The notes: generated from the sequence alone by a model not told the origin. 64,000 nt of DNA from Gemmatimonadaceae bacterium (GCA_035533015.1 DATLUQ010000035.1:1-64000), one strand, 5' to 3'. Shown: positions 1 to 14,838, numbered from the stretch's first letter. Program-made: numbers and translations.

Positions 1-227
1 CCGATGGTGGTCAGCGCGATCACCTCGATGAACCCGCGGCGCTCCGTGGGGTGGGGGCACCCGTCACCCGGGATCAGCGTCCCCCAGGCCCCACACCCCT
101 CGCACCTCTCTACCACCTGGGGATGCAGCGCCAGCGCCCAGACCGGCGGATCCAATCCAGCGTCCTTCCACGCGGGCAGGACCCTGGAGATGATCGAGCG
201 CATCTCCGCGACCAGGCTAGACGTCAT
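1..227 (-). CDS. Partial zinc-ribbon-like protein, cut by the left window edge
   Basis: An open frame on the minus strand starts with ATG at 227 and runs off the left edge without a stop, so only about 75 residues are visible. They contain a CxxC pair (CEGCGAW) followed by GCPHP, which looks like three or four ligands of a small zinc ribbon. No function can be named. It lies upstream of nothing else on that strand within view and is followed (in gene order towards higher coordinates) by two more minus-strand genes of mobile-element flavour. No clear ribosome binding site was seen, so the start is provisional. Confidence 0.45.
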   Translation of the reverse strand, partial: MTSSLVAEMRSIISRVLPAWKDAGLDPPVWALALHPQVVERCEGCGAWGTLIPGDGCPHPTERRGFIEVIALTTI

Positions 228-337
228 GGCGTCGGGCCGGAGCCGGTCCCGTAGAGCCGCAACTCGCGACGACTGCCGCGCCCGGACGGACCGGGGACCG
301 CGCGGCGGCCACGAGCGCAATCGGCCCACGTGTACGG

Positions 338-784
338 TCACGAGTCACGGCGACTCGCGGCCCCGATGATTGTGATCAGAACCGCGGCCACGGCGATCCA
401 GGCCCCCGCGGCGGCCCCGGACGGGCCGTCGATCCAGCCCCCAATTCCATATCCAGCGGCAATGGTCGCGACGACGAGGGCCACCGCCGCGACGGCGGCG
501 AGGAGGCCTAGTGCCAGGCCGCCGATCACCATAAGAATGCTGCCGACGGCTCCCGCGAGCACCTCTATCCCGCTCCAGAACCCGCCGAGTACCCAGGCCA
601 ACGCCTCGAGCCAGAGAGGATCTTCAGGTGGGGGCGCGGGGGGGAGGGCGGGCGGCTGGCTGGTTCGGATCCCGGCGCGCTCCCACCTCAGGGCCCCGTT
701 CTCGTAGTACGCGCGCTCGATGACGCGCTCTTCCGACGAGGGGTCGCCGGGGCGGTCAGGCGGATAGGGCATGGGCGATTTCAT
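338..784 (-). CDS. Small alanine/glycine-rich membrane protein, unknown function
   Basis: The product is 148 residues when started at ATG 784; the frame is open further upstream but that extension is low-complexity and arginine-rich. Residues 1-55 are polar and end in a proline run. Residues about 76-111 form one long or two short hydrophobic segments, and 123-142 form another, so it is probably an inner-membrane protein with two or three spans. I do not recognise a family. It sits beside a replication-relaxation-like gene on the same strand, a setting common in integrative or plasmid-derived elements. Confidence 0.5.
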   Translation of the reverse strand: MKSPMPYPPDRPGDPSSEERVIERAYYENGALRWERAGIRTSQPPALPPAPPPEDPLWLEALAWVLGGFWSGIEVLAGAVGSILMVIGGLALGLLAAVAAVALVVATIAAGYGIGGWIDGPSGAAAGAWIAVAAVLITIIGAASRRDS

Positions 785-971
785 GGCGCCAACACCATAC
801 GGGGACTCGCCGGCTCGCCGATGTGCATGCCTATCACTGGCACATTTTTCGACGCCGTGCGACGGACGACGCGATGCCCGGCGCGGCCAGCCATGCCAGA
901 AGTCCTTGCCACACCGCAATTTGGCGACCGCCAGCCTCGGGGAACCGTTCCGTCGGTCCCCCGGCCCATGG

Positions 972-1946
972 CTACAGCACCCCACCCGGCCGTGTAGCCA
1001 GCCACATCGAGGCCGACCGCGCCGTCAGGGGGCCGGGGACCCCGGCTCGCGCGTACGCGCTCTCTGTCGGGATCTTCAATCGATGCGGATGGGGCAGTTC
1101 GCCATACGGGGGCACGGAATGGATGTTGACGGCGATCGGTCGGCGTGGCTGGCCTGACGGCCGCCGCTTCCCGCGCTTCCCGCCGGAATAGTGCCACCCC
1201 CGGAACCACTCGCGAACCCGCTTCTCCGCGAGGTCCGCAGGGACGTCCGCCGCAACGAGCTCCAGTTCCAGCGGCCGGAATTCCGCGAAATGGGACAGCG
1301 TGGCGAGGCCGCGGCAGACGCGGCGAAGCCCTCGTGTCGATCGCACCGGGACCAGGAGTCGAACGTCGCCGGTGCCGGCGTGGACCAACGCCCACACCTT
1401 CAGGCCGGGGTCCCGTACCCGGGACAGGAGATCATACTCCTGCGCCCCCTGGCGTCCGAGGCGCGCCCGGGCGGCCTTCAGGGTCAGGTCTCGCAGGCGC
1501 GGCCAGGCCTCGGCCCACCGGACGAAGGTCCACCCCGCGGCCTCGCGGATGAGCGCCACCTGCGCCAGTTGCATCAGGTGCGCCTCGGATACGCGGGCCG
1601 CAATCGGCCGGGCGGGCGGCAGCTCGGCCCAGCCGGCGCGTGTCAGCGTGACCACATGTTGCGACCGGTGGCCGGTCCATGCCGTAAGCGGGTGGCGCTG
1701 GAGCAGCCCCTGGGCGACGAGGCGTTGGACGACCCGGAAGCCGTGGCTAGCCGAGACCCCGTCGTACAGCCAAAAACGATAGAGCAGCTGGCGCTCGGTC
1801 ACCGCGCCGTGGATGCCCACCCACGTCACGATCGGCACCCTGAAAATCGAGAATCCGGTCCCGAGAAAGGTCGGCGTCCGGGCCGCCGCCGGAAACAGAG
1901 GCAGCTGGAACGGGTCAGGGTGAGTTGCTGCGCGTTCGGTGGGCAT
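972..1946 (-). CDS. Winged-helix protein of replication-relaxation type
   Basis: The product is 324 residues from ATG 1946; an earlier ATG at 2018 only adds a leucine/arginine-rich stretch. Residues about 30-110 fit a winged helix: a TERQLLYRFW-type helix, a recognition helix near HGFRVVQRLVAQGLL and a wing ending in VTLTRAGW. A helical segment around HLMQLAQVAL resembles the middle of Replic_Relax proteins, which occur in actinobacterial and other plasmids or integrative elements. The C-terminal half is basic and unrecognised. DNA binding is inferred from the fold; a role in replication or transfer of an element is only suggested by family and context. Confidence 0.5.
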   Translation of the reverse strand: MPTERAATHPDPFQLPLFPAAARTPTFLGTGFSIFRVPIVTWVGIHGAVTERQLLYRFWLYDGVSASHGFRVVQRLVAQGLLQRHPLTAWTGHRSQHVVTLTRAGWAELPPARPIAARVSEAHLMQLAQVALIREAAGWTFVRWAEAWPRLRDLTLKAARARLGRQGAQEYDLLSRVRDPGLKVWALVHAGTGDVRLLVPVRSTRGLRRVCRGLATLSHFAEFRPLELELVAADVPADLAEKRVREWFRGWHYSGGKRGKRRPSGQPRRPIAVNIHSVPPYGELPHPHRLKIPTESAYARAGVPGPLTARSASMWLATRPGGVL

Positions 1947-2368
1947 ACGAGCAGCGTGGAGGGCCAGAGGGACCCGCCGCAACAGGGACGCCCGCAACAG
2001 GACGAGTGATCCGCCCATTCACCACGCGGGGCCGTCGCGCGCGGCCGGAAACTCGGCCCGTCCGGGCATGGCCGCCGCCCACACGATAGAAGGGCGAGGC
2101 GGCACGCGGCAACGGCTACCGGTCAGGGACGCGCCGCCAGTACATGGAGTAGGCCGACGGTCGCGCCCCCGTGGTGCGCCAGTCGCCTGACCTCTGCAAA
2201 TGCGCGCGCCAACGGCGCGTGCAAACGCGGGACGATAGGGGGTGGCTGGGCGAGCTTGTCGCGGGAAGAGCTCGACGCCTATCCCCTCGCATCGGAGCGC
2301 AGCCACGGACCGGTATCTCTCATGGGTTACGCGCTCGCCACTCTCAAACACCAATGGAGGACTCCGAC
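1947..2368. other. Intergenic, no gene recognised
   Basis: About 420 bases between divergently read genes. I see only GC-rich sequence with scattered short inverted repeats and no convincing coding frame, RNA or promoter of standard form. It presumably contains the promoters of both flanking genes. Confidence 0.4.
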
Positions 2369-3165: not shown

Positions 3166-4116
3166 TCAGCCTGAAACTGGCAAGGACACGTGTTCGGATT
3201 CAAACAGCTTGCCACCGTCACTGAGGCTGAGCCTCTGTAGGCAGTAGAGCTGCCAGTAGCGACGCCACACGTCCTCTGTCGCGGGGAGGTAGGCGACGTC
3301 AAGCTCCATCGCCTCGGCCGCTTGACGGTTTATGACCTTCCCATGCGTCAGCCAGTGGTCAGTATCGATTAGCTTCGCTGCTACCGATGTGTAGTTGCCT
3401 TTGTCCCGAAGCATGCCTGTCTTGAGCTGGTCCTCAGCGAGTTTTTGAGAGCGCCTATGGACGGCTTCAAAGAGCTTCAGAGTGCCGGGATCGAGCTTGT
3501 CGAGCATCATTCGAGCGACGGGGTCCGTCGGGTTGGCCCGGAGTGCCTCGGCGTGCTGTCCGTACGCGTCGAGGTAGCTCTTCACCGAGTGGGCCACACG
3601 ATTGCCGTTCGCGTCTGCCACGACGATTTGCGGGTCGATGGGCCCTAGCTCGGACGTGTCACTCATCACGATGCAATCGGCGCCAATCGCCATAAGCGTG
3701 CCGGCACTCTTCGCGAAGTCCGGCACGATAACGCGAAGTCGCCCATTCCCGACCCAGTTCCGTAGGAGCGTGACGAGTTTCTCAGCGGCATCGATGTCCC
3801 CACCGCCCGTGTGCAGCAAGAGGTCGATGTTTGAGCCCCTCTGGACGTTGTGAACCAGGTCTGCAAAGAAAACGACGTCGTCGCGGTCGATTGATGACCG
3901 CGGACCGCAGACGTAGCAGAGGAGACAATTCCCCTCGACTTCTTGGATTTCCCTTATGCGCTCCTGACGGTGATATCGGGCCGCATGAATTGCCTGATAC
4001 ATCGGCGTCTTCGCCGGTCGTGTGGAGAGCGGCGTACCGGCGTCCTCGCGACCCTCGGTCAATGGTTCTCCTCTTGGCCCAGGGGGCAAGGCCGACCCCT
4101 CTTGATTCAAACCCAT
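3166..4116 (-). CDS. Clp-fold serine protease, SDH (serine dehydrogenase proteinase) type
   Basis: The product is 316 residues from ATG 4116, overlapping the end of the upstream gene by 10 bases. It matches the SDH/SppA-like branch of the ClpP/crotonase fold. Visible motifs are LLLHTGGGDIDAAEKL (TGGG at 103-106, oxyanion region), the AKSAG nucleophile motif with Ser137, and SELGPIDPQ at 155-163. There is no signal peptide, so it should act in the cytoplasm. Residues 64-70 hold three cysteines (CLLCYVC). It is the last of five minus-strand genes whose others are ubiquitin-like conjugation factors, so it may cut or process conjugates; that role is inference. An earlier ATG at 4149 would lengthen the overlap. 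Confidence 0.85.
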   Translation of the reverse strand: MGLNQEGSALPPGPRGEPLTEGREDAGTPLSTRPAKTPMYQAIHAARYHRQERIREIQEVEGNCLLCYVCGPRSSIDRDDVVFFADLVHNVQRGSNIDLLLHTGGGDIDAAEKLVTLLRNWVGNGRLRVIVPDFAKSAGTLMAIGADCIVMSDTSELGPIDPQIVVADANGNRVAHSVKSYLDAYGQHAEALRANPTDPVARMMLDKLDPGTLKLFEAVHRRSQKLAEDQLKTGMLRDKGNYTSVAAKLIDTDHWLTHGKVINRQAAEAMELDVAYLPATEDVWRRYWQLYCLQRLSLSDGGKLFESEHVSLPVSG

Positions 4117-4427
4117 TTGACCCGTCCGCTCGTGATAAAGAAATGGCACCGACCAACTGGCCCCAAGGCATCGATGCTTGGTGAGATCGACAGTTTACGT
4201 CCATGAGCGAGGCGCCATACTGGCCGGCGACGCTCATCAAGATTCACTAGAATGCGATGATTGTTGCGGCAAGGGCAGTCAAAGCTCAACCACTTCGGCG
4301 TCTTTCGGTCTCCGACAAGAACCGCGGCCCGCGGCGGCAGGCGACCCGGTACGTCATCCGCGGCTTCGACTACGCCGACGACCCGCCAGGACCACCATGG
4401 CCACCACTCCCAAAAACGCAGTCTCAT
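4107..4427 (-). CDS. DUF6527-type small metal-binding protein of the ubiquitin-like operon
   Basis: The product is 106 residues. The ATG at 4427 overlaps the stop of the JAB-E1 gene as ATGA. A tryptophan-rich N-terminus precedes a conserved core: KWLSFDCPC (Cys51, Cys53) with His57, then RPVWRL, then SISPSI (81-85) and GRCHFFITSGRVKW with Cys94 and His95. This pattern matches DUF6527 proteins found beside bacterial E2/E1-JAB/ubiquitin-like genes. Cys51, Cys53, Cys94 and His95 or His57 could hold zinc. A peptidase or deconjugating role has been suggested for such proteins as far as I know, but nothing in the sequence proves it. Confidence 0.78.
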   Translation of the reverse strand: MRLRFWEWWPWWSWRVVGVVEAADDVPGRLPPRAAVLVGDRKTPKWLSFDCPCRNNHRILVNLDERRRPVWRLAHGRKLSISPSIDALGPVGRCHFFITSGRVKWV

Positions 4428-5806
4428 TGCGACCACGTTTGCTCGAGAAACGGTGTCGTGATCCCAAGTCCCACCTTGCCGGCAGCCTCATGACAATAGT
4501 GCCCAATTCGCGGCTCGGCGCGATTTGTGGAGATCTCCCGCTCGTGCATCCGAAGAAGAACTTCGCTCGGTCGCGGGCTCGGACCATAACCAATAAGGCG
4601 CTCCAGCAGCTCGCAAATTGCCGCGGCCGCCACGGCAGTGGTGAAGCTAACCACAGCGGGCTCTACGCCTCCGAGTGCAGGAGCGTACCCCTCTTCAGCT
4701 CGTCGCTTCCGTTCGTCGGGCGTCAGAAGCTCCGACGCTGCGCGCCTCAGATTGATCCGTCCACGACACACGAGACACGCCTGCCCCGGTACCAAAGTAG
4801 TAACGCGCCCGTCGATCCCGGCCACTCGTGAATGAGCATCTGCACTAAGAAGGACGCCGCAGTCAATGACGGGTAGCATCATGTATGTGGCAAGCCGCGA
4901 TAAGACCAGCCGGCCTGCATTGTCATCGGTGCACCCGAATAGGACGTCGCAATCAGTCAACGACTCTGCCGTCGATTGGACGCAGATGCTCGAACGAAGC
5001 TGATCGACCTGGACCGAAGGATTGATGTCGCGCAGATGAGCTCCGACAACTTCAACTTTGGGTGCGCCTACTTGCGCAAGCGTCGAACCATAGAGGCGTG
5101 TGACGTTCGACGCGGTCAGCTCATCCGGATCCACGAGGGTGAATTGACGCACACCTAATCGAGCCAATTGTTCGGCAACACTCGATCCAGTACCTCCGCA
5201 GCCGATGATGCCCACTCGTAGCTCGTCAAGCGTCGCCTGCATGGCGGGCCCGAAGGCTCGAATGTTGCGATCGAACATGGCGTGTTCAGAGCGCTGGTGC
5301 CTTTCGAACGATGATAGAGCCTGGAGTCGGTCGCCGACGACCTGGATCCGATCGAGTGCCCATCTAGTGTCATCGGACGACCAAATACTACCAGTGAATG
5401 AGAGTGTGTCCGACGTGGGCGCGATGACCATGCTGACGTAGTACGGGCTGCCCGTGCGCAGTCGAAAAACGTCAATCAGCTCCGAATCAACATCGTGGTC
5501 GTGCCGACTGGGGACGGGTCGTGAGCCAACTCCAGGGTGAGTGTGAAGCCAAACGGCGGCGGCTTGCATATTCGCGGCTTCGCCAAGCGCGTGCACATAG
5601 CCCGAGGATCGGATCGAGAGGCCATCGGCCTCCCGTCGAGCGTACGCATCCTCGTTGACCCAAAGCAGCCGGCGCCCGAGCAAACGAGGCCCGGACTTCG
5701 TGCTCACGACAGATGCCAACAGAACTCCTGCGGTTTCTACGGGAAGCCGCGCGGCGCGATTCAGCTCGGCGAAGATGGCGTCGCTCACGACTAGCGTTGA
5801 GGTCAT
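4424..5806 (-). CDS. JAB/JAMM protease-E1 activating enzyme fusion
   Basis: The product is 460 residues. The start at ATG 5806 overlaps the E2 stop as ATGA, which decides it over upstream ATGs inside the E2 gene. Residues 1-140 are a JAB/JAMM isopeptidase domain with Glu24, His88-Thr-His90, Ser100 and Asp103; the gap from HxH to Ser is nine residues rather than the usual seven. Residues about 190-400 are a ThiF/E1 domain: GCGGTG at 202-207, VDPDEL with Asp226 and Asp228, Asn234, Arg237, Lys250, and CTDDN at 292-296. Cys344, Cys347 and Cys438 with nearby histidines may bind zinc or serve in transfer. It would activate the small ubiquitin-like protein as an adenylate and also remove it. Confidence 0.93.
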   Translation of the reverse strand: MTSTLVVSDAIFAELNRAARLPVETAGVLLASVVSTKSGPRLLGRRLLWVNEDAYARREADGLSIRSSGYVHALGEAANMQAAAVWLHTHPGVGSRPVPSRHDHDVDSELIDVFRLRTGSPYYVSMVIAPTSDTLSFTGSIWSSDDTRWALDRIQVVGDRLQALSSFERHQRSEHAMFDRNIRAFGPAMQATLDELRVGIIGCGGTGSSVAEQLARLGVRQFTLVDPDELTASNVTRLYGSTLAQVGAPKVEVVGAHLRDINPSVQVDQLRSSICVQSTAESLTDCDVLFGCTDDNAGRLVLSRLATYMMLPVIDCGVLLSADAHSRVAGIDGRVTTLVPGQACLVCRGRINLRRAASELLTPDERKRRAEEGYAPALGGVEPAVVSFTTAVAAAAICELLERLIGYGPSPRPSEVLLRMHEREISTNRAEPRIGHYCHEAAGKVGLGITTPFLEQTWSQ

Positions 5807-6183
5807 TGAACGCATCGAACCAGCTCTCGTCGGATCAATGCGACGAAACTCTCGAGCGTGTCGATCCCTGAGCGCCATTGACCTGTGCTGAAGTGTCGCG
5901 ACCAGCGTTGCCAAGTGCGACCAAGGTGATTTTCAAACGTGTCAGCCGCCTGGATCGGGCGGCCGTCGGCGCGGCGCAGCGGCGGATCGAACCACCACAT
6001 GTCAGGAGGCACGTCGGGATAGCCGGGGTTCAAGCGCAGGAGGAGATCCGCGCGCTCCCGGTCATAGCCGAGTGGCACCTGAAAACCAGCCAGCACAACG
6101 CACGTCATGTTCGCTTCAATCGCGACGCGGTGTTCGATAATCCGCTCACCAAGGTACTGGAGATCGATTGCCGGAAGAGTCAT
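5803..6183 (-). CDS. E2-like protein (prokaryotic E2 family E)
   Basis: The product is 126 residues, starting 6 bases after the ubiquitin-like gene's stop. The layout follows the Prok-E2_E family: a beta-meander with DLLLRLNPGYPDVPPDMWWFDPP (46-68), then DTFENHLGRTWQRWSRHF (81-98) and a last helix beginning GIDTLESF. Only two cysteines exist, Cys28 in an early strand and Cys124 near the end; none falls after the WWFDPP segment where a classical E2 keeps its catalytic cysteine. His86 and His97 in the NHLGRTW...RH block look conserved-type residues. It probably carries or positions the ubiquitin-like protein after the E1, but by a non-classical mechanism. Confidence 0.8.
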   Translation of the reverse strand: MTLPAIDLQYLGERIIEHRVAIEANMTCVVLAGFQVPLGYDRERADLLLRLNPGYPDVPPDMWWFDPPLRRADGRPIQAADTFENHLGRTWQRWSRHFSTGQWRSGIDTLESFVALIRRELVRCVQ

Positions 6184-6189
6184 ACGGTC

Positions 6190-6456
6190 CTAACCGACGT
6201 ATCGGCCTGGATTGATGTGTGCGGGGGCAGTGAAAAACCGGGCCCCGTCGCGAATCTCAACAACGGTCCCGTCGTCGATCTTTCGATCCGCGCCGCCGGG
6301 CACCACTTCGAAGAGATCTCGATCCTGAGAAATCGGCGGAGTGGGCAGTTGTCGCAGTTCCGTCCCCGTCATTGCCGACGCGGTGACTGTGTAGTGCACA
6401 CGATCAATCTGAATTTGACGGCGTTCAGGTTGCTTCTCGTGATCCGCGGTGACCAT
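6190..6456 (-). CDS. Ubiquitin-like protein (single multiubiquitin-family domain)
   Basis: The product is 88 residues with ATG at 6456 and an AGGAG site (plus-strand CTCCT at 6464-6468) about 8 bases before it. After a polar N-terminus, residues 13-85 fit a beta-grasp domain of the multiubiquitin family: IQIDRVHYTVTAS, MTGTELRQL, DRDLFEVVPGG and DGTVVEIRDGARFFT. The chain ends NPGRYVG, so the C-terminal residue is already glycine and would need no trimming to be adenylated. Only one domain copy is present, whereas many relatives have tandem copies. As first gene of the operon, 6 bases before the E2-like gene, it is the expected conjugated modifier. Confidence 0.78.
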   Translation of the reverse strand: MVTADHEKQPERRQIQIDRVHYTVTASAMTGTELRQLPTPPISQDRDLFEVVPGGADRKIDDGTVVEIRDGARFFTAPAHINPGRYVG

Positions 6457-6478: not shown

Positions 6479-6536
6479 GTGATACCACGGTATCATAGAC
6501 GTTGACAGGAACGGTGTCAAGGTGGTAAGGTATCAC
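6479..6536. promoter_or_regulatory. Divergent promoter with interleaved -35 boxes and GTGATACC operators
   Basis: On the minus strand, TTGACA (plus-strand 6515-6520) and TATGAT (6492-6497) are separated by 17 bases, a near-consensus sigma-70 promoter for the ubiquitin-like operon. On the plus strand TTGACA lies at 6502-6507, with a weak -10 near 6525-6531 for the regulator gene. The two -35 boxes form an inverted repeat with a 7-base gap. GTGATACC at 6479-6486 with GGTATCAT at 6489-6496 makes a near-perfect palindrome over the operon's -10, and GGTATCAC at 6529-6536 repeats the half-site just before the regulator's ATG. The divergent ribbon-helix-helix protein is the likely ligand, giving joint autorepression. 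Confidence 0.75.
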
Positions 6537-6538
6537 GC

Positions 6539-6745
6539 ATGAAACCAGCCAAGGCGATGACTGTTAGACTCTCCCCCGAACAGGCAGAGGCGCTAGAAAC
6601 CGTGGCCGCGGTCGATGATCAGCCGATTGCGGAGGTGATCCGGGCGGCAATCGCGGACCATATTGAGAAGCGCCGACGGGACCGCCGATTCCAAGACAGC
6701 CTTGAGAAGCGGATTCAGCGGGCCAGCCAAATGCTCAACAAGTAG
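6539..6745 (+). CDS. Ribbon-helix-helix (CopG/Arc-type) transcription regulator
   Basis: The product is 68 residues. Residues 6-12 (AMTVRLS) are the beta ribbon, 13-25 the first helix (PEQAEALETVAAV) and 30-43 the second (IAEVIRAAIADHI), as in CopG/Arc regulators and many antitoxins; the C-terminus is basic and helical. It is transcribed divergently from the ubiquitin-like operon and is not followed by a toxin-like gene, so control of the operon is the likelier role. There is only a weak AAGG 8 bases before the ATG, and the predicted transcript start lies close to the ATG, so the message may be nearly leaderless. Confidence 0.85.
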   Translation: MKPAKAMTVRLSPEQAEALETVAAVDDQPIAEVIRAAIADHIEKRRRDRRFQDSLEKRIQRASQMLNK

Positions 6746-9798: not shown

Positions 9799-9961
9799 CG
9801 GGGTCCAATCTAATGAGAGGGACGTCGACTGGTCGAGCCGCCACCCGCCGTCCGTCACCCGCCGTCACGCGACGCATGGTGGCCGGTGCGGCTTGAAGCC
9901 CGTATGTTGGTGGGCGCTGGGCGGTGGGTTCCCATCGCCTGACATCTCACGGCGGACTGAC

Positions 9962-12610
9962 ATGGGCGAGATCGAGACGCTGACCGCGGCCTTGGCTGGC
10001 CACTACGCCATCCAGCGCGAGATCGGCGCCGGCGGCATGGCCACCGTCTACCTCGCCCACGACGTGCGCCACGATCGCGACGTTGCGATCAAAGTCGTGC
10101 ATCCCGATCTCGGCGCAGTACTCGGCGGCGAGCGGTTCCTGGCCGAGATCAAGACCACGGCCAAGCTGCAGCACCCGCACATCCTGCCGCTGCTCGATTC
10201 GGGAAACGCGAACGGGCTGCTGTTCTACGTGATGCCGATGGTGGCCGGCGAGTCGCTGCGCCAGCGGCTCGATCGCGAGAAGCAGCTCCCGATCCCCGAG
10301 GCCGTGCGCATCGCCGGCGAAGTGGCGAGCGCGCTGGACTACGCCCACCGCCACGGCGTGATTCATCGCGACATCAAGCCGGAGAACATTCTACTGCACG
10401 ACGGGCAGGCGCTGGTCGCCGACTTCGGGATCGCGCTCGCCGTTCAGAGTGCGGGCGGCGCGCGCATGACGCAGACGGGACTCTCACTCGGGACGCCGCA
10501 GTACATGTCACCCGAGCAAGCGATGGGTGAGAGGAGCATCGACGCACGCAGCGATATCTACGCCCTGGGCGCCGTGACGTACGAGATGCTCGCGGGCGAC
10601 GCCCCGTTCACCGGGTCGAGCGTGCAGGCAATCGTGGCCAAGGTGCTGGCCGAACGCCCGACGCCGCTCCATACGCTGCGCGACACGGTGCCGCCGGCGG
10701 TGGAGCACGCCGTGCTCACGGCGCTGGCCAAACTCCCCGCCGACCGGTTTGCGACGGCCGCGGAGTTCGGTCAGGCGCTGAGTGACGATGCAGTGGGCGC
10801 CGCGGGTCACCGGCGGCGCGCGCACCCGGCATCAGCCGCCGGCGCGGGCGCTGCCCGCCGGGCGCGTTGGCTGCAGTGGGCCTGGATTCCCGCGGCGCTG
10901 ATCGGCGTGTTCGCCGGCACGCTGCACCGCCCCAGGGGCGCCGAGCCGGAGCCGCCGCTGCGCGCCAGCCTCCTGCCGCCCACCGGGTGCGACTTCGGCG
11001 ACGTGGCCACCAGCAACCTCATGCAGCTCTCCCCCGACGGCGCCGCGATGGTGTTCGTGGTGCGATGCGCTGGCGCGCAGTCGCTCTGGATCCGCACCCT
11101 CGCCACGGGCGCCATGCGCGCGCTCCCCGGTACGGCGAATGCCATCTATCCGTTCTGGTCGCCGGACGGACAGAGCCTGGGCTTCTTTGCCGACGGGAGG
11201 CTCAAGCGCATTGACCTCGCGAGCGGCGCCATTCGCGATCTGGCGCCGGCGTTGAATGGACGTGGTGGAACGTGGAACCGCGATGGTGTGATCCTCTATG
11301 CGCCCGACCTCAATACGTCCATCTATCGCGTGTCGGCGGCCGGCGGCGATGCGCGACCGGAGACCTCGAAGCCGGCCGGCGAAGCCCGGACATACCGGCT
11401 GCCATATTTTCTTCCCGATGGACGGCACTTCCTGTTCGTAGAGGGCGGTGGCGTCGGGCAGGCCGGTGCGGAGGTCGTCGGCGAATTGGGTTCGAACCGG
11501 ACACGGCGCCTGCTCGATGTGCCGTCGAACGTCGCCTTCGCAGATGGCCGGCTCTTCTACGTGCAGGATGGCGCGCTCTTTGCTCGGCCGTTCTCCCCCG
11601 GTACCGCGACGTTCTCCGGGAGCGCGGTCGCCGTCGCGCCCGGGATCGAATCGTGGCCGTTCAAGTACATCGGCAACTTCTCGCCGGCCGGCGACCTTCT
11701 GGTCTATCGAGGGCCGTTGGGGCGCGAACGCCGGATGGTCTGGTTCAACCCCGCCACGCAAACGCAGGTGGCCGTCGTACCGCCGGGGCCGTACGCGTAC
11801 GTCGGCCTGTCACCCGACGGCCGTCAGATCCTGACCGAGCGATCGGAGCCCGACAGCCCGCTGGTCGACGTCTGGCTCTACCAACTGGCGGCGCAGCGCT
11901 GGACTCAATTCACCACCCACCCCGACGTCTACTACGCGGCGGCGTGGTCTCCGGATGGCTCGCGAATCGCCGTGCAGCCAGCTGGCGATACCGTCACGCG
12001 CATCGTCTCGGTGGACCAACGCCCGATCACCAGTTATGCGTCGGGACTCACGGGCCCCGGGTTGATCGACACGTGGTCGCCCGATGGTTCGTTCGCGGTG
12101 GGAACCCGCCAGGTCACGGCCACCGGCTTTGATCTGATCCGATTCCGGTTCGCCGCGCAGCCCGCCGGACCGGAGGTGCTGCTCGCCGCGCCGGGCGATC
12201 AGATGAGTCCTCGTATTTCTCCCTCCGGCCGGTTGCTTGCCTACCTGTCAAATCAGACTGGCGACTGGGAGGTCTACCTGACGGCCTTGCCCGATGCCGA
12301 CGGGCAACAGCCGGTGTCGCAGAACGGAGCCTGGTCGGCGGGCACGGGCCAGGCCGATCCGCTCACCTGGAGCCGCGATGGACGTACGCTTTATTTTGTC
12401 GACGCAACCCAGCACCTGATGTCGGCCGCGGTCGCGGCCGGTCCGCCGGTGCAGATCGGGCGTCCCACACCAGTTCCCGGCGCGCCGGTGGGCGTGGTGA
12501 GTCTGAGCGCGGCACCGGACGGACGCCTGCTGCTGCTGTACGACGACAACCAACATCCCGTGCCGGCGACAGTGATCGCCAACTGGCCGGCGATACTGCG
12601 TAGCCGCTGA
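9962..12610 (+). CDS. PknB-type Ser/Thr protein kinase with extracytoplasmic PD40-like propeller
   Basis: The product is 882 residues from ATG 9962. The kinase domain spans about 15-275: GAGGMATV loop at 22-29, Lys44, Glu62, HRDIKPEN at 135-142 and DFG at 154-156, so it should be active. A linker leads to one membrane span at about 303-320, and the remaining 560 residues form repeated WD40/PD40-like blades (for example SPDGAAMVF, SPDGQSLGFF, SPDGRQILT, SPDGSRIAV). The kinase is cytoplasmic and the propeller periplasmic, probably a sensor. It is divergent from the permease at 7.1-9.5 kb and paralogous to the kinase at 13.2 kb; both chains align from the first residue. Confidence 0.93.
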   Translation: MGEIETLTAALAGHYAIQREIGAGGMATVYLAHDVRHDRDVAIKVVHPDLGAVLGGERFLAEIKTTAKLQHPHILPLLDSGNANGLLFYVMPMVAGESLRQRLDREKQLPIPEAVRIAGEVASALDYAHRHGVIHRDIKPENILLHDGQALVADFGIALAVQSAGGARMTQTGLSLGTPQYMSPEQAMGERSIDARSDIYALGAVTYEMLAGDAPFTGSSVQAIVAKVLAERPTPLHTLRDTVPPAVEHAVLTALAKLPADRFATAAEFGQALSDDAVGAAGHRRRAHPASAAGAGAARRARWLQWAWIPAALIGVFAGTLHRPRGAEPEPPLRASLLPPTGCDFGDVATSNLMQLSPDGAAMVFVVRCAGAQSLWIRTLATGAMRALPGTANAIYPFWSPDGQSLGFFADGRLKRIDLASGAIRDLAPALNGRGGTWNRDGVILYAPDLNTSIYRVSAAGGDARPETSKPAGEARTYRLPYFLPDGRHFLFVEGGGVGQAGAEVVGELGSNRTRRLLDVPSNVAFADGRLFYVQDGALFARPFSPGTATFSGSAVAVAPGIESWPFKYIGNFSPAGDLLVYRGPLGRERRMVWFNPATQTQVAVVPPGPYAYVGLSPDGRQILTERSEPDSPLVDVWLYQLAAQRWTQFTTHPDVYYAAAWSPDGSRIAVQPAGDTVTRIVSVDQRPITSYASGLTGPGLIDTWSPDGSFAVGTRQVTATGFDLIRFRFAAQPAGPEVLLAAPGDQMSPRISPSGRLLAYLSNQTGDWEVYLTALPDADGQQPVSQNGAWSAGTGQADPLTWSRDGRTLYFVDATQHLMSAAVAAGPPVQIGRPTPVPGAPVGVVSLSAAPDGRLLLLYDDNQHPVPATVIANWPAILRSR

Positions 12611-12827: not shown

Positions 12828-13245
12828 ATGTGCAAATGCTCATACTCCGGTCGCTCGCTTTCAAGACTGGCGCGGCGGCGTGCCGCGGAGTGCGGACGTG
12901 GGCGACGGCGGGAGCGGTGGTGGGGGAAGGGCTTCCAATAGCCACATTCGTGCCACAACGGTCGGACCGGGCCGGACTGTGGAATCGGCACAACCGCCCA
13001 GGTGGAAACGGCTTGCACGATCGGCACCGCGTCAAATCACGGCCGCTTTCAAGACCGGTGCAATAGCCGTTCTGCCAGCCCTCCCAAGCATGTCAGATCG
13101 CGGGGGCGTGACCGGATGCCACACGCCTTGCCGAGAGATCCTTCAAGAGTGAAAAGACGCCAGTACAGCCAGCCATCCCCCGAGTCCCCGTCCTCGGAAA
13201 GCACCCTGGTGTCGAGTGCCCCTAGGCGGCATGTTGGCGATGCCT
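12828..13245. repeat. Diverged duplicate of the permease-kinase intergenic region
   Basis: Several blocks match 9541-9961 in the same order and spacing. AAATGCTCAT at 12834 matches 9543-9553, and TCCAATAGCCACA at 12934 matches TCCAAATAGCCACA at 9644; the distance is about 101 bases in both. The 44-bp tRNA fragment follows at 109-111 bases, then the kinase start at 160-164 bases. Between the blocks the two copies are strongly diverged. It presumably holds the promoter of the second kinase. Confidence 0.7.
13043..13086 (-). repeat. 5' half of tRNA-Ser(UGA), copy 2 of a 44-bp perfect repeat
   Basis: All 44 bases are identical to 9755-9798, although the flanking DNA is only patchily alike. On the minus strand it gives the acceptor 5' strand, D arm and anticodon loop CTTGAAA of tRNA-Ser(UGA), after which the tRNA pattern stops at the same base as in copy 1. 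It lies 160 bases before the second kinase start. Confidence 0.8.
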
Positions 13246-14838
13246 ATGCCGATTACCGAGGACTTCCGAAACGGGCTTGCTGACCGCTACCGCATTGAGC
13301 GTGAGCTCGGGCCCGGGGGAATGGCAAATGTGTACCTCGCTCGTGACCTGAAGCACGACCGCGACGTGGTCCTCAAGGTGCTCAAGCCGGAACTCAGCGA
13401 GGCATCCGATGTAGCGCGCTTCCTCGCGGAGATCCGCATTACTGCGAGCCTCCAGCATCCGCACATCCTCACGCTGATTGACTCGGGCGTGAGCGCCGAT
13501 ATGCCGTACTATGTGGTGCCGTACATTCAGGGTGAATCCCTGCGGGACCGGCTGGATCGAGAGCGCCAGTTGAGCCTCACTGACGCGGTTGCCATTGTGA
13601 AGCCGATTGCGGCGGCCCTCGACTATGCACATGCACGTAATGTTGTGCATCGCGACGTAAAACCGCACAACATTTTGCTGCAAGACCGGGAAGCAATCCT
13701 GGCTGATTTCGGCATCGCCCTCGCGGTCCAACGCGCCGGAGGCAAACGGCTCACGGAATCTGGCTACGTGCTCGGGACTCCGGAGTACATGAGTCCGGAG
13801 CAGCTTTTGGGAGATCGCGACCTCGATGCGCGTAGCGACGTGTATTCGCTCGGAGCGGTGGTCTATGAGATGCTGGCCGGGGAGCCACCGGCCAGGGGCG
13901 CGAACTGGCAGGCCCTCGCCGCACGCGTGCTCAATGCCGTGCCCACCCCGTTGCATCTTGTGCGGAGCACCGTGCCGATCGCTGTCGACGAGACCGTGGC
14001 GCGATCTCTCGCCAAGACGCCAGCCGACCGGTTTCAAACTGCCGGTGAGTTCGCGATCGCGCTGGAGGCAGCGTCTACTGAGAACCCGGCGGCGCTCCCC
14101 CGCACGGTCCCACTAGCGCCCCCTCCTGTCTTGCGTGTGCGCCGCCGCGGTGCGCTGGTTGCCATGGGCACCTTAGCCTTCTTTACAGCGGCGCTTTGGT
14201 TTGCTCACCGACCAACCCGGGCAAACGAGCCCCCAGGAGGTAAGCCGTATTTGCACCTCACGGTCGATGGGTCGCATGGGCCGGTGCTGCTTGATCCTTC
14301 TGACGTGGAGTACACCTACTCATGGACATCCGAAGGGACTACCAATGGGGTCTGCGAGATGGTGGCTCCCGCAACCTCCGGCATCATGGCTTCTGGCAGC
14401 AACAAGGTCGTCCGCGGCAACCCATTCTTCCCGGCTGCCGGAACGAGTATGCAAATTGCGATTACGTGCCCATCCATCGATGGAACCGTGCTGGCAGACG
14501 CAGTGACTGTGACGGTTGCTGCCGTGCGAGGGCCCACCGTGCTGCTCACCGTCCATGGTTCGGGTGGCCTGAGTGCTTCGAATGAGGGCTCGGTCGTGCT
14601 CGATAGTGGTGACACGTATGATTACGCTTGGGTGGCGCGACATGCGCAATCGTGCAAGTTAATCAGTCCGCAAGGCGCCCCCATGCAAGCGGCAGGCACG
14701 GTACTGCGGGTTGGACCTGGAGATCCGATGTATCCGAAGGACGTCAACAATCCCCTGATGCTGACAATTGAGTGTACGGACGGTAAATGGGTAGACCTGC
14801 AATGGGTTCGCATACTCCTCGCACCGCCGCGGCACTGA
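13246..14838 (+). CDS. PknB-type Ser/Thr protein kinase with a duplicated Cys-pair sensor domain
   Basis: The product is 530 residues. ATG 13246 is chosen among several because it gives exact N-terminal alignment with the first kinase (15 residues from Met to the conserved Tyr); ATGs at 13231 and 13240 are alternatives. The kinase domain spans 15-275 with GPGGMANV, Lys44, HRDVKPHN at 135-142 and DFG at 154-156. One membrane span lies at about 302-318. The outer part (335-530) is not a propeller: it consists of two related repeats of about 95 residues, each opening with a LTVDGSHG or LTVHGSGG strand and holding two cysteines (C..C, possible disulfide). I do not recognise this domain. Confidence 0.9.
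   Translation: MPITEDFRNGLADRYRIERELGPGGMANVYLARDLKHDRDVVLKVLKPELSEASDVARFLAEIRITASLQHPHILTLIDSGVSADMPYYVVPYIQGESLRDRLDRERQLSLTDAVAIVKPIAAALDYAHARNVVHRDVKPHNILLQDREAILADFGIALAVQRAGGKRLTESGYVLGTPEYMSPEQLLGDRDLDARSDVYSLGAVVYEMLAGEPPARGANWQALAARVLNAVPTPLHLVRSTVPIAVDETVARSLAKTPADRFQTAGEFAIALEAASTENPAALPRTVPLAPPPVLRVRRRGALVAMGTLAFFTAALWFAHRPTRANEPPGGKPYLHLTVDGSHGPVLLDPSDVEYTYSWTSEGTTNGVCEMVAPATSGIMASGSNKVVRGNPFFPAAGTSMQIAITCPSIDGTVLADAVTVTVAAVRGPTVLLTVHGSGGLSASNEGSVVLDSGDTYDYAWVARHAQSCKLISPQGAPMQAAGTVLRVGPGDPMYPKDVNNPLMLTIECTDGKWVDLQWVRILLAPPRH

What the first reader, a model, noticed from the sequence alone, without database searches (positions are those of the whole stretch)
3166..6456. Five-gene ubiquitin-like conjugation operon with a built-in protease
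Seen: five minus-strand genes in tight coupling (6-base gap, two ATGA overlaps, one 10-base overlap) encode a beta-grasp protein ending in Gly, an E2-like protein, a JAB-E1 fusion, a DUF6527-type protein and a Clp-fold serine protease. Known: bacterial operons with multiubiquitin-type protein, E2 family E, E1-JAB and DUF6527 have been recognised by comparative genomics and linked to phage defence. Inference: this locus conjugates a small modifier to targets and probably defends the host or controls protein fate. It lies in a region with mobile-element features.
Basis: partly seen in the sequence, partly recalled or inferred. Interest (0 to 1): 0.9.

Follow-up and report, generated by a model that had tools for sequence, protein, structure and literature searches.

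The report
Bub ubiquitin-like operon with ClpP-like protease
A bacterial operon predicted to attach a small ubiquitin-like tag to proteins (a known 'Bub' system) comes in a widespread form that carries its own ClpP-like protease gene and usually its own regulator gene, which suggests a compact tag-and-cleave system.

Summary
Five coupled minus-strand genes (6456-3166) encode a Multi_ubiq-family Ubl, a family-E E2, a JAB-E1 fusion, DUF6527 and a ClpP-fold SDH-type protease. The first four form a Bub operon: E2 and JAB-E1 match the solved Citrobacter BubB and BubCD, a layout recognised in 2006. What stands out is the fifth gene. In a genome scan, all 19 protease relatives scoring above 270 bits, plus one cut by a contig end, sit directly after DUF6527 of a Bub operon; none of the other 60 has Bub genes nearby. 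Protease-bearing operons form one E1 clade and one protease clade across seven phyla, with correlated divergence. They usually share a divergent ribbon-helix-helix gene with TGATACC/GGTATCA sites at the promoter, and a Ubl ending in invariant INPG plus a variable tail, so the working glycine is probably Gly84, not the last residue. Rhizobium has an SDH protease beside a different Bub lineage. Most likely mechanism: JAB trims the Ubl, E1/E2 conjugate it, the protease acts on tagged proteins; the last step is inference. Phage defence is not shown.

The parts
6190..6456 (-). BubA-like ubiquitin-like modifier (88 aa, one Multi_ubiq domain); INPG at residues 81-84, tail RYVG 85-88
   Evidence: PF14452 E 7e-9; alignment with 16 relatives, G84 invariant; weak profile match to solved multi-ubiquitin proteins 9cd2, 9d5b and to 8u38 BilA, E 0.004-0.015
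5803..6183 (-). BubB-like E2 (Prok-E2 family E, 126 aa); no conserved Cys, invariant S95 and W103
   Evidence: PF14462 E 9e-35; Citrobacter BubB 9eae/9eav E 1e-9; alignment
4424..5806 (-). BubCD-like JAB-E1 fusion (460 aa from ATG 5806); JAMM E27/H91/H93/S103/D106 and adenylation R240/K253/D297, numbered from the upstream ATG at 5815
   Evidence: ThiF E 4e-39; Citrobacter BubCD 9ea4 E 5e-25; alignment
4107..4427 (-). DUF6527 protein (106 aa), invariant C51, C53, H57, C94, H95, probable metal site; probably the one called BubE (name inferred from gene order)
   Evidence: PF20137 E 2e-16; alignment; model pLDDT 87 with no significant PDB match
3166..4116 (-). ClpP-fold SDH-type serine protease (316 aa), predicted nucleophile S137 in AKSA, invariant G105-G106, invariant H258
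   Evidence: PF01972 E 1.4e-14; alignments; model pLDDT 91, best PDB matches PH1510-N protease and ClpP
6539..6745 (+). divergent ribbon-helix-helix (CopG-type) regulator, 68 aa
   Evidence: RHH_1 PF01402 over cut-off; homologue at the same place in 25 of 30 protease-bearing loci
6480..6495 (.). palindrome TGATACC-N2-GGTATCA, probable RHH operator overlapping the -10 hexamer
   Evidence: only copy in the window, none in 100 shuffles; a half-site occurs in 21 of 25 loci against 0.7 in shuffles
6492..6520 (-). sigma-70-like promoter TTGACA-N17-TATGAT upstream of the Ubl gene
   Evidence: 11 of 12 consensus positions; about 0.9 such sites are expected by chance in the 3.9 kb scanned, so its position and overlap with the palindrome carry the weight

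Best explanation
This is a Bub (bacterial ubiquitination-like) operon of a distinct six-gene subtype: RHH regulator, Ubl, E2, JAB-E1, DUF6527 and a ClpP-fold SDH protease. Proposed working: the RHH protein holds the promoter shut at the TGATACC/GGTATCA sites; when it is released, the JAB domain removes the short tail after INPG and exposes Gly84; the E1 domain adenylates it; the cysteine-poor E2, with or without DUF6527, passes it to target proteins; and the co-expressed SDH protease cleaves tagged proteins or their attached partners, a tag-and-cleave cassette. Shown by sequence: gene order, homology, conserved active-site residues, the conserved INPG with a variable tail, the conserved RHH gene and sites, and the linkage and co-inheritance of the protease. 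Inferred: every catalytic step here, the repressor role, and above all that the protease acts on tagged proteins.
For: Homology to Citrobacter BubB and BubCD. JAMM residues invariant, and MoeB R73/K86/D130 map at identical spacing to R240/K253/D297. INPG is followed by 1-26 variable residues in 27 protease-type Ubls readable as separate genes. Linkage: 19 of 19 protease relatives above 270 bits, plus the contig-truncated L071, lie at a Bub operon; 0 of the other 60 do. 28 protease-type E1s form one clade, SH-aLRT 100; 29 Bub-linked proteases plus one orphan form one clade, SH-aLRT 99. Distances of E1, E2 and DUF6527 track those of the protease, r 0.78-0.84, 0 of 2000 permutations as high. An SDH protease also follows DUF6527 in a different Bub lineage in Rhizobium. 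Conserved nucleophile and fold. RHH gene and operator.
Against: Most Bub operons sampled lack the protease, so it is not needed for conjugation itself. There is no ATPase gene in the operon, so degradation of folded targets is not assured. No conserved counterpart of PH1510-N Lys138 was found, so the catalytic base is unidentified. No fusion joins the protease to a Bub protein in the loci scored.
Confidence: 0.5

Rival explanations
1. The SDH protease is a second processing or deconjugating peptidase: it matures the Ubl tail or strips Ubl from conjugates, beside or instead of the JAB domain.
For: The Ubl tail needs removal and varies in length. Protease and INPG-type Ubl are confined to the same clade; other Bub Ubls mostly end in TEG.
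Against: The JAB active site is fully intact in the protease-bearing proteins, and Bub lineages without the protease also have Ubls with tails, so a processing enzyme is already present.
Confidence: 0.22
2. The SDH protease regulates the operon: it cleaves the RHH repressor on a stress signal, like the HTH repressor and peptidase pairs reported to control other Bub operons.
For: RHH gene and protease co-occur in 25 of 30 loci. CapH+CapP pairs flank other Bub operons (PMC13373217).
Against: The protease is the last gene of the operon it would control. The Rhizobium Bub lineage has an SDH protease with an HTH gene instead of RHH, and L044, L079 and L085 have the protease without a recognised RHH gene.
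Confidence: 0.12
3. The protease is an autonomous cargo gene, such as a toxin-like protease, that travels with the operon on mobile DNA but has no part in Ubl chemistry.
For: Several copies lie on plasmids, and integrase, Fic and restriction genes occur nearby. One partial protease of the clade without Bub genes exists (L073).
Against: Constant position after DUF6527, mostly with overlapping ends, across seven phyla; correlated divergence; a second association in another lineage.
Confidence: 0.13

Closest known systems
Bub operons (bacterial ubiquitination-like; Citrobacter BubB/BubCD structures 9ea4, 9ea5, 9ea8, 9eae, 9eav; Ye et al. 2026 and Gong et al. 2025, cited in PMC13373217, not readable here)
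   Same: Multi_ubiq Ubl, family-E E2, JAB-E1 fusion and DUF6527 in the same order; conserved JAMM and adenylation residues; E2 without a conserved cysteine
   Different: Single Ubl domain in a separate gene (the Citrobacter plasmid operon fuses Ubl and E2); C-terminus INPG; RHH gene instead of CapK/CapS; additional SDH protease gene; separate E1 clade
Class 6e operons of Iyer, Burroughs and Aravind 2006 (PMC1779556)
   Same: Ubl, inactive-type E2, JAB fused to E1, and a metal-binding protein (their Y, by position probably DUF6527)
   Different: Neither ClpP nor 'serine protease' occurs in that paper's text
Bil operons (BilABCD)
   Same: Ubl, E1, E2 and JAB in one operon
   Different: Separate BilC JAB and BilD E1; here JAB and E1 are fused and a second protease is present
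PH1510-N stomatin-specific protease and ClpP
   Same: ClpP fold; Ser97 of PH1510-N aligns with S137
   Different: No strongly hydrophobic segment that would suggest a membrane anchor, no ATPase gene alongside, no conserved counterpart of Lys138 found

Membership tests
Bub operon | Multi_ubiq-type Ubl gene at the head | tested here: met
   PF14452 over cut-off
Bub operon | E2 homologous to BubB | tested here: met
   phmmer 1e-9, family profile 3e-38
Bub operon | JAB-E1 fusion homologous to BubCD with JAMM and adenylation residues | tested here: met
   JAB by conserved residues, the Pfam JAB score alone is sub-threshold
Bub operon | DUF6527 gene after E1 | tested here: met
   same place in the Citrobacter plasmid operon
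Bub operon | Ubl conjugation activity | not testable with these tools
   needs purified proteins
Bil operon | separate JAB (BilC) and E1 (BilD) genes | tested here: not met
   JAB and E1 are one protein here
SDH_protease (PF01972) | score over the family cut-off | tested here: met
   54.3 against 31.3 bits
SDH_protease (PF01972) | ClpP fold and conserved serine nucleophile | tested here: met
NF047768 Clp_like_SDH equivalog | score over its cut-off of 250 bits | tested here: not met
   67.8 bits; so a relative, not that equivalog
known anti-phage system in PADLOC-DB | several components recognised by its models | tested here: not met
   only the E1 matches, to E1-E2 models, over part of their length
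anti-phage defence system | protects a host from phage | not testable with these tools

The most novel reading that the evidence does not exclude
A self-contained bacterial counterpart of the ubiquitin-proteasome idea: a Ubl conjugation cascade whose tagged targets are handed to a dedicated ClpP-fold protease encoded in the same operon, arisen at least twice (the main RHH-linked clade and a Rhizobium lineage).
Probability: 0.3. Interest if true: 0.88.

Novelty: new variant of a known kind. Interest (0 to 1): 0.64.

Why it matters
If the protease acts on Ubl-tagged proteins, this would be a compact system built like ubiquitin tagging coupled to proteolysis, testable in one bacterial operon. It also splits Bub operons into sub-lineages with their own regulator, Ubl C-terminus and accessory gene, and gives a lead to what Bub conjugation is for, which is an open question.

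Tried and rejected
Canonical E2 or E1 thioester cysteine: no conserved cysteine in the E2 alignment, and the only invariant E1 cysteine (C295) lies beside adenylation residue D297. Terminal Gly88 as the working residue: rejected, not conserved. Phage carriage: no E2 match in phage records, and no confirmed match in viral contigs with the window protein. Fold of DUF6527: a good model (pLDDT 87) but no PDB match below E 0.7; repeated weak USP-domain hits are not significant; no sequence relative in the PDB. Protease relatives by plain phmmer in the PDB: none credible; the profile was needed. Defence-island context of protease-type loci: only scattered restriction, MADS, Fic and Abi matches among 103 crudely called neighbour ORFs, without a control set, so left as a lead. 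Reading Ye et al. 2026 and Gong et al. 2025: not held, so I cannot exclude that they mention the protease.

Full report
What is there. Pfam names them Multi_ubiq, Prok-E2_E, ThiF (with a sub-threshold Prok-JAB), DUF6527 and SDH_protease. PADLOC sees only the E1.

What it is. The E2 and the JAB-E1 protein match the solved Citrobacter BubB and BubCD (family profile against BubB E 3e-38). A Citrobacter plasmid operon has the same order: Ubl and E2 fused, then JAB-E1, then DUF6527. So the first four genes are a Bub operon, a type recognised in 2006 as class 6e (PMC1779556) and recently named Bub (PMC13373217). [quoted passage not shown]

Active sites. In the JAB-E1 protein the JAMM residues E27, H91, H93, S103 and D106 are invariant in 17 relatives, and R240, K253 and D297 stand at the same spacing as MoeB R73, K86 and D130. 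The E2 has no conserved cysteine; S95 and W103 are invariant over 21 sequences, in line with the 2006 description of an inactive-type E2. Whether S95 carries the Ubl is open. DUF6527 keeps C51, C53, H57, C94 and H95, a likely metal site; its predicted fold has no significant PDB match.

The Ubl tail. In the protease-type operons the Ubl ends in invariant INPG followed by 1-26 residues without conservation. Most tails have 9 residues or fewer. Other Bub Ubls mostly end in TEG, often also with a tail. I infer that the JAB domain trims the tail as deubiquitinases trim ubiquitin precursors, which makes G84 the working residue.

The protease. A profile of the fifth protein finds PH1510-N (E 5e-7) and then ClpP in the PDB. 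An AlphaFold2 model with pLDDT 91 gives the same answer (best Z 14.3, rmsd 3.5 over 178 residues). S137 aligns with the PH1510-N nucleophile Ser97. The base is unknown; H258 is invariant in Bub-linked and other relatives alike. There is no ATPase gene in the operon and no strongly hydrophobic segment.

The linkage. I scanned one genome per species with the protease alignment and scored the 80 best loci for Bub genes. Twenty loci have Bub genes directly upstream: all 19 whose protease scores above 270 bits, and L071, whose protease is cut by the contig end (229 bits). In 18 of the 20 all four Bub genes are found; L056 begins inside the E1 gene, and in L079 my crude gene calls run together. None of the other 60 loci (250 bits or less) has any Bub gene; one of them, L073, a partial copy, belongs to the Bub clade by tree. 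By record title the linked loci come from seven phyla: Planctomycetota, Pseudomonadota, Actinomycetota, Acidobacteriota, Gemmatimonadota, Spirochaetota and Chloroflexota.

Co-inheritance. Twenty-eight protease-type E1s form one clade with SH-aLRT 100; the 21 E1s of operons without the protease lie outside it. The Bub-linked proteases form one clade with L073, SH-aLRT 99. Pairwise distances of E1, E2 and DUF6527 correlate with those of the protease at 0.78, 0.81 and 0.84, with 0 of 2000 permutations as high. These are quick trees without bootstrap. Neighbouring branches mix phyla, which points to spread of the whole unit between phyla, partly on plasmids.

A second association. Rhizobium gallicum and R. 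leguminosarum plasmids carry a PF01972 protease after DUF6527 of a Bub operon; the E1 of the R. gallicum operon (L031) groups with the Citrobacter type. Its protease lies far from the main clade (a long branch), so this looks like separate recruitment. Other Bub operons have unrelated peptidase-like genes nearby (L029 and L034 HExxH proteins, L151 SprT-like, L148 and L156 S8 peptidases), a lead that I did not test against background.

Regulation. A divergent RHH gene (6539-6745) has a homologue at the same place in 25 of 30 protease-bearing loci and is rare in the others sampled. Half-sites TGATACC or GGTATCA occur in the intergenic region of 21 of 25 loci against 0.7 in shuffles, and in none of 8 other Bub operons tested. 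In the window the palindrome 6480-6495 overlaps the -10 hexamer of a TTGACA-N17-TATGAT promoter. Two pairs of loci in these counts are near-copies (L039/L069, L023/L059). Repression by the RHH protein is inferred.

How common. In 395 genomes of the phylum 21 have the E2 family, and 4 of these loci, the window's included, carry the protease. In plasmids 99 records have the E2, and the 7 records with a full-length protease match all have it at a Bub operon.

Surroundings. The same-genus genome G395 shares window 1-1982 at 74% identity but has a tyrosine-recombinase-like ORF further along where the window has the operon. That fits a mobile setting; the exact ends were not mapped.

Verdict. The finding is real and of a known kind. 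The protease-bearing subtype with its RHH gene is a variant that I found no mention of in the papers I could search, but the two main Bub papers were not readable. Its function is inferred.

Noticed in passing
L136:4869-5753, L031:7081-7991, L137:3932-4480: Rhizobium Bub operons outside the main protease clade with their own SDH-type protease after DUF6527; apparently shortened or split in L031 and L137.
   Followed up: partly
L029:7623-8576, L034:7171-8100, L151:8638-9270: Genes for HExxH or SprT-like peptidase-like proteins downstream of other Bub operons, possibly alternative proteases at the same end.
   Followed up: no
L148:8218-11812, L156:2583-5378: S8 peptidase plus ATPase gene pairs directly beside two Bub operons.
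   Followed up: no
L022:3563-4353, L023:3608-4398, L024:3599-4377, L025:3590-4368: A small gene and a Fic-family gene next to the RHH gene in four plasmid-borne protease-type Bub loci.
   Followed up: no
L157:5059-6561 against window 1-1982: A same-genus genome has a tyrosine-recombinase-like ORF beyond the stretch it shares with the window, where the window has the Bub operon.
   Followed up: partly
L073:6779-7438: A partial protease of the Bub clade in Subtercola boreus without Bub genes nearby, perhaps a remnant.
   Followed up: no
window 9893-12610 and 13216-14838: Two neighbouring Ser/Thr kinase genes, the first with PD40 beta-propeller repeats; the kinase part has many similar copies in this genome and its relatives.
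   Followed up: no
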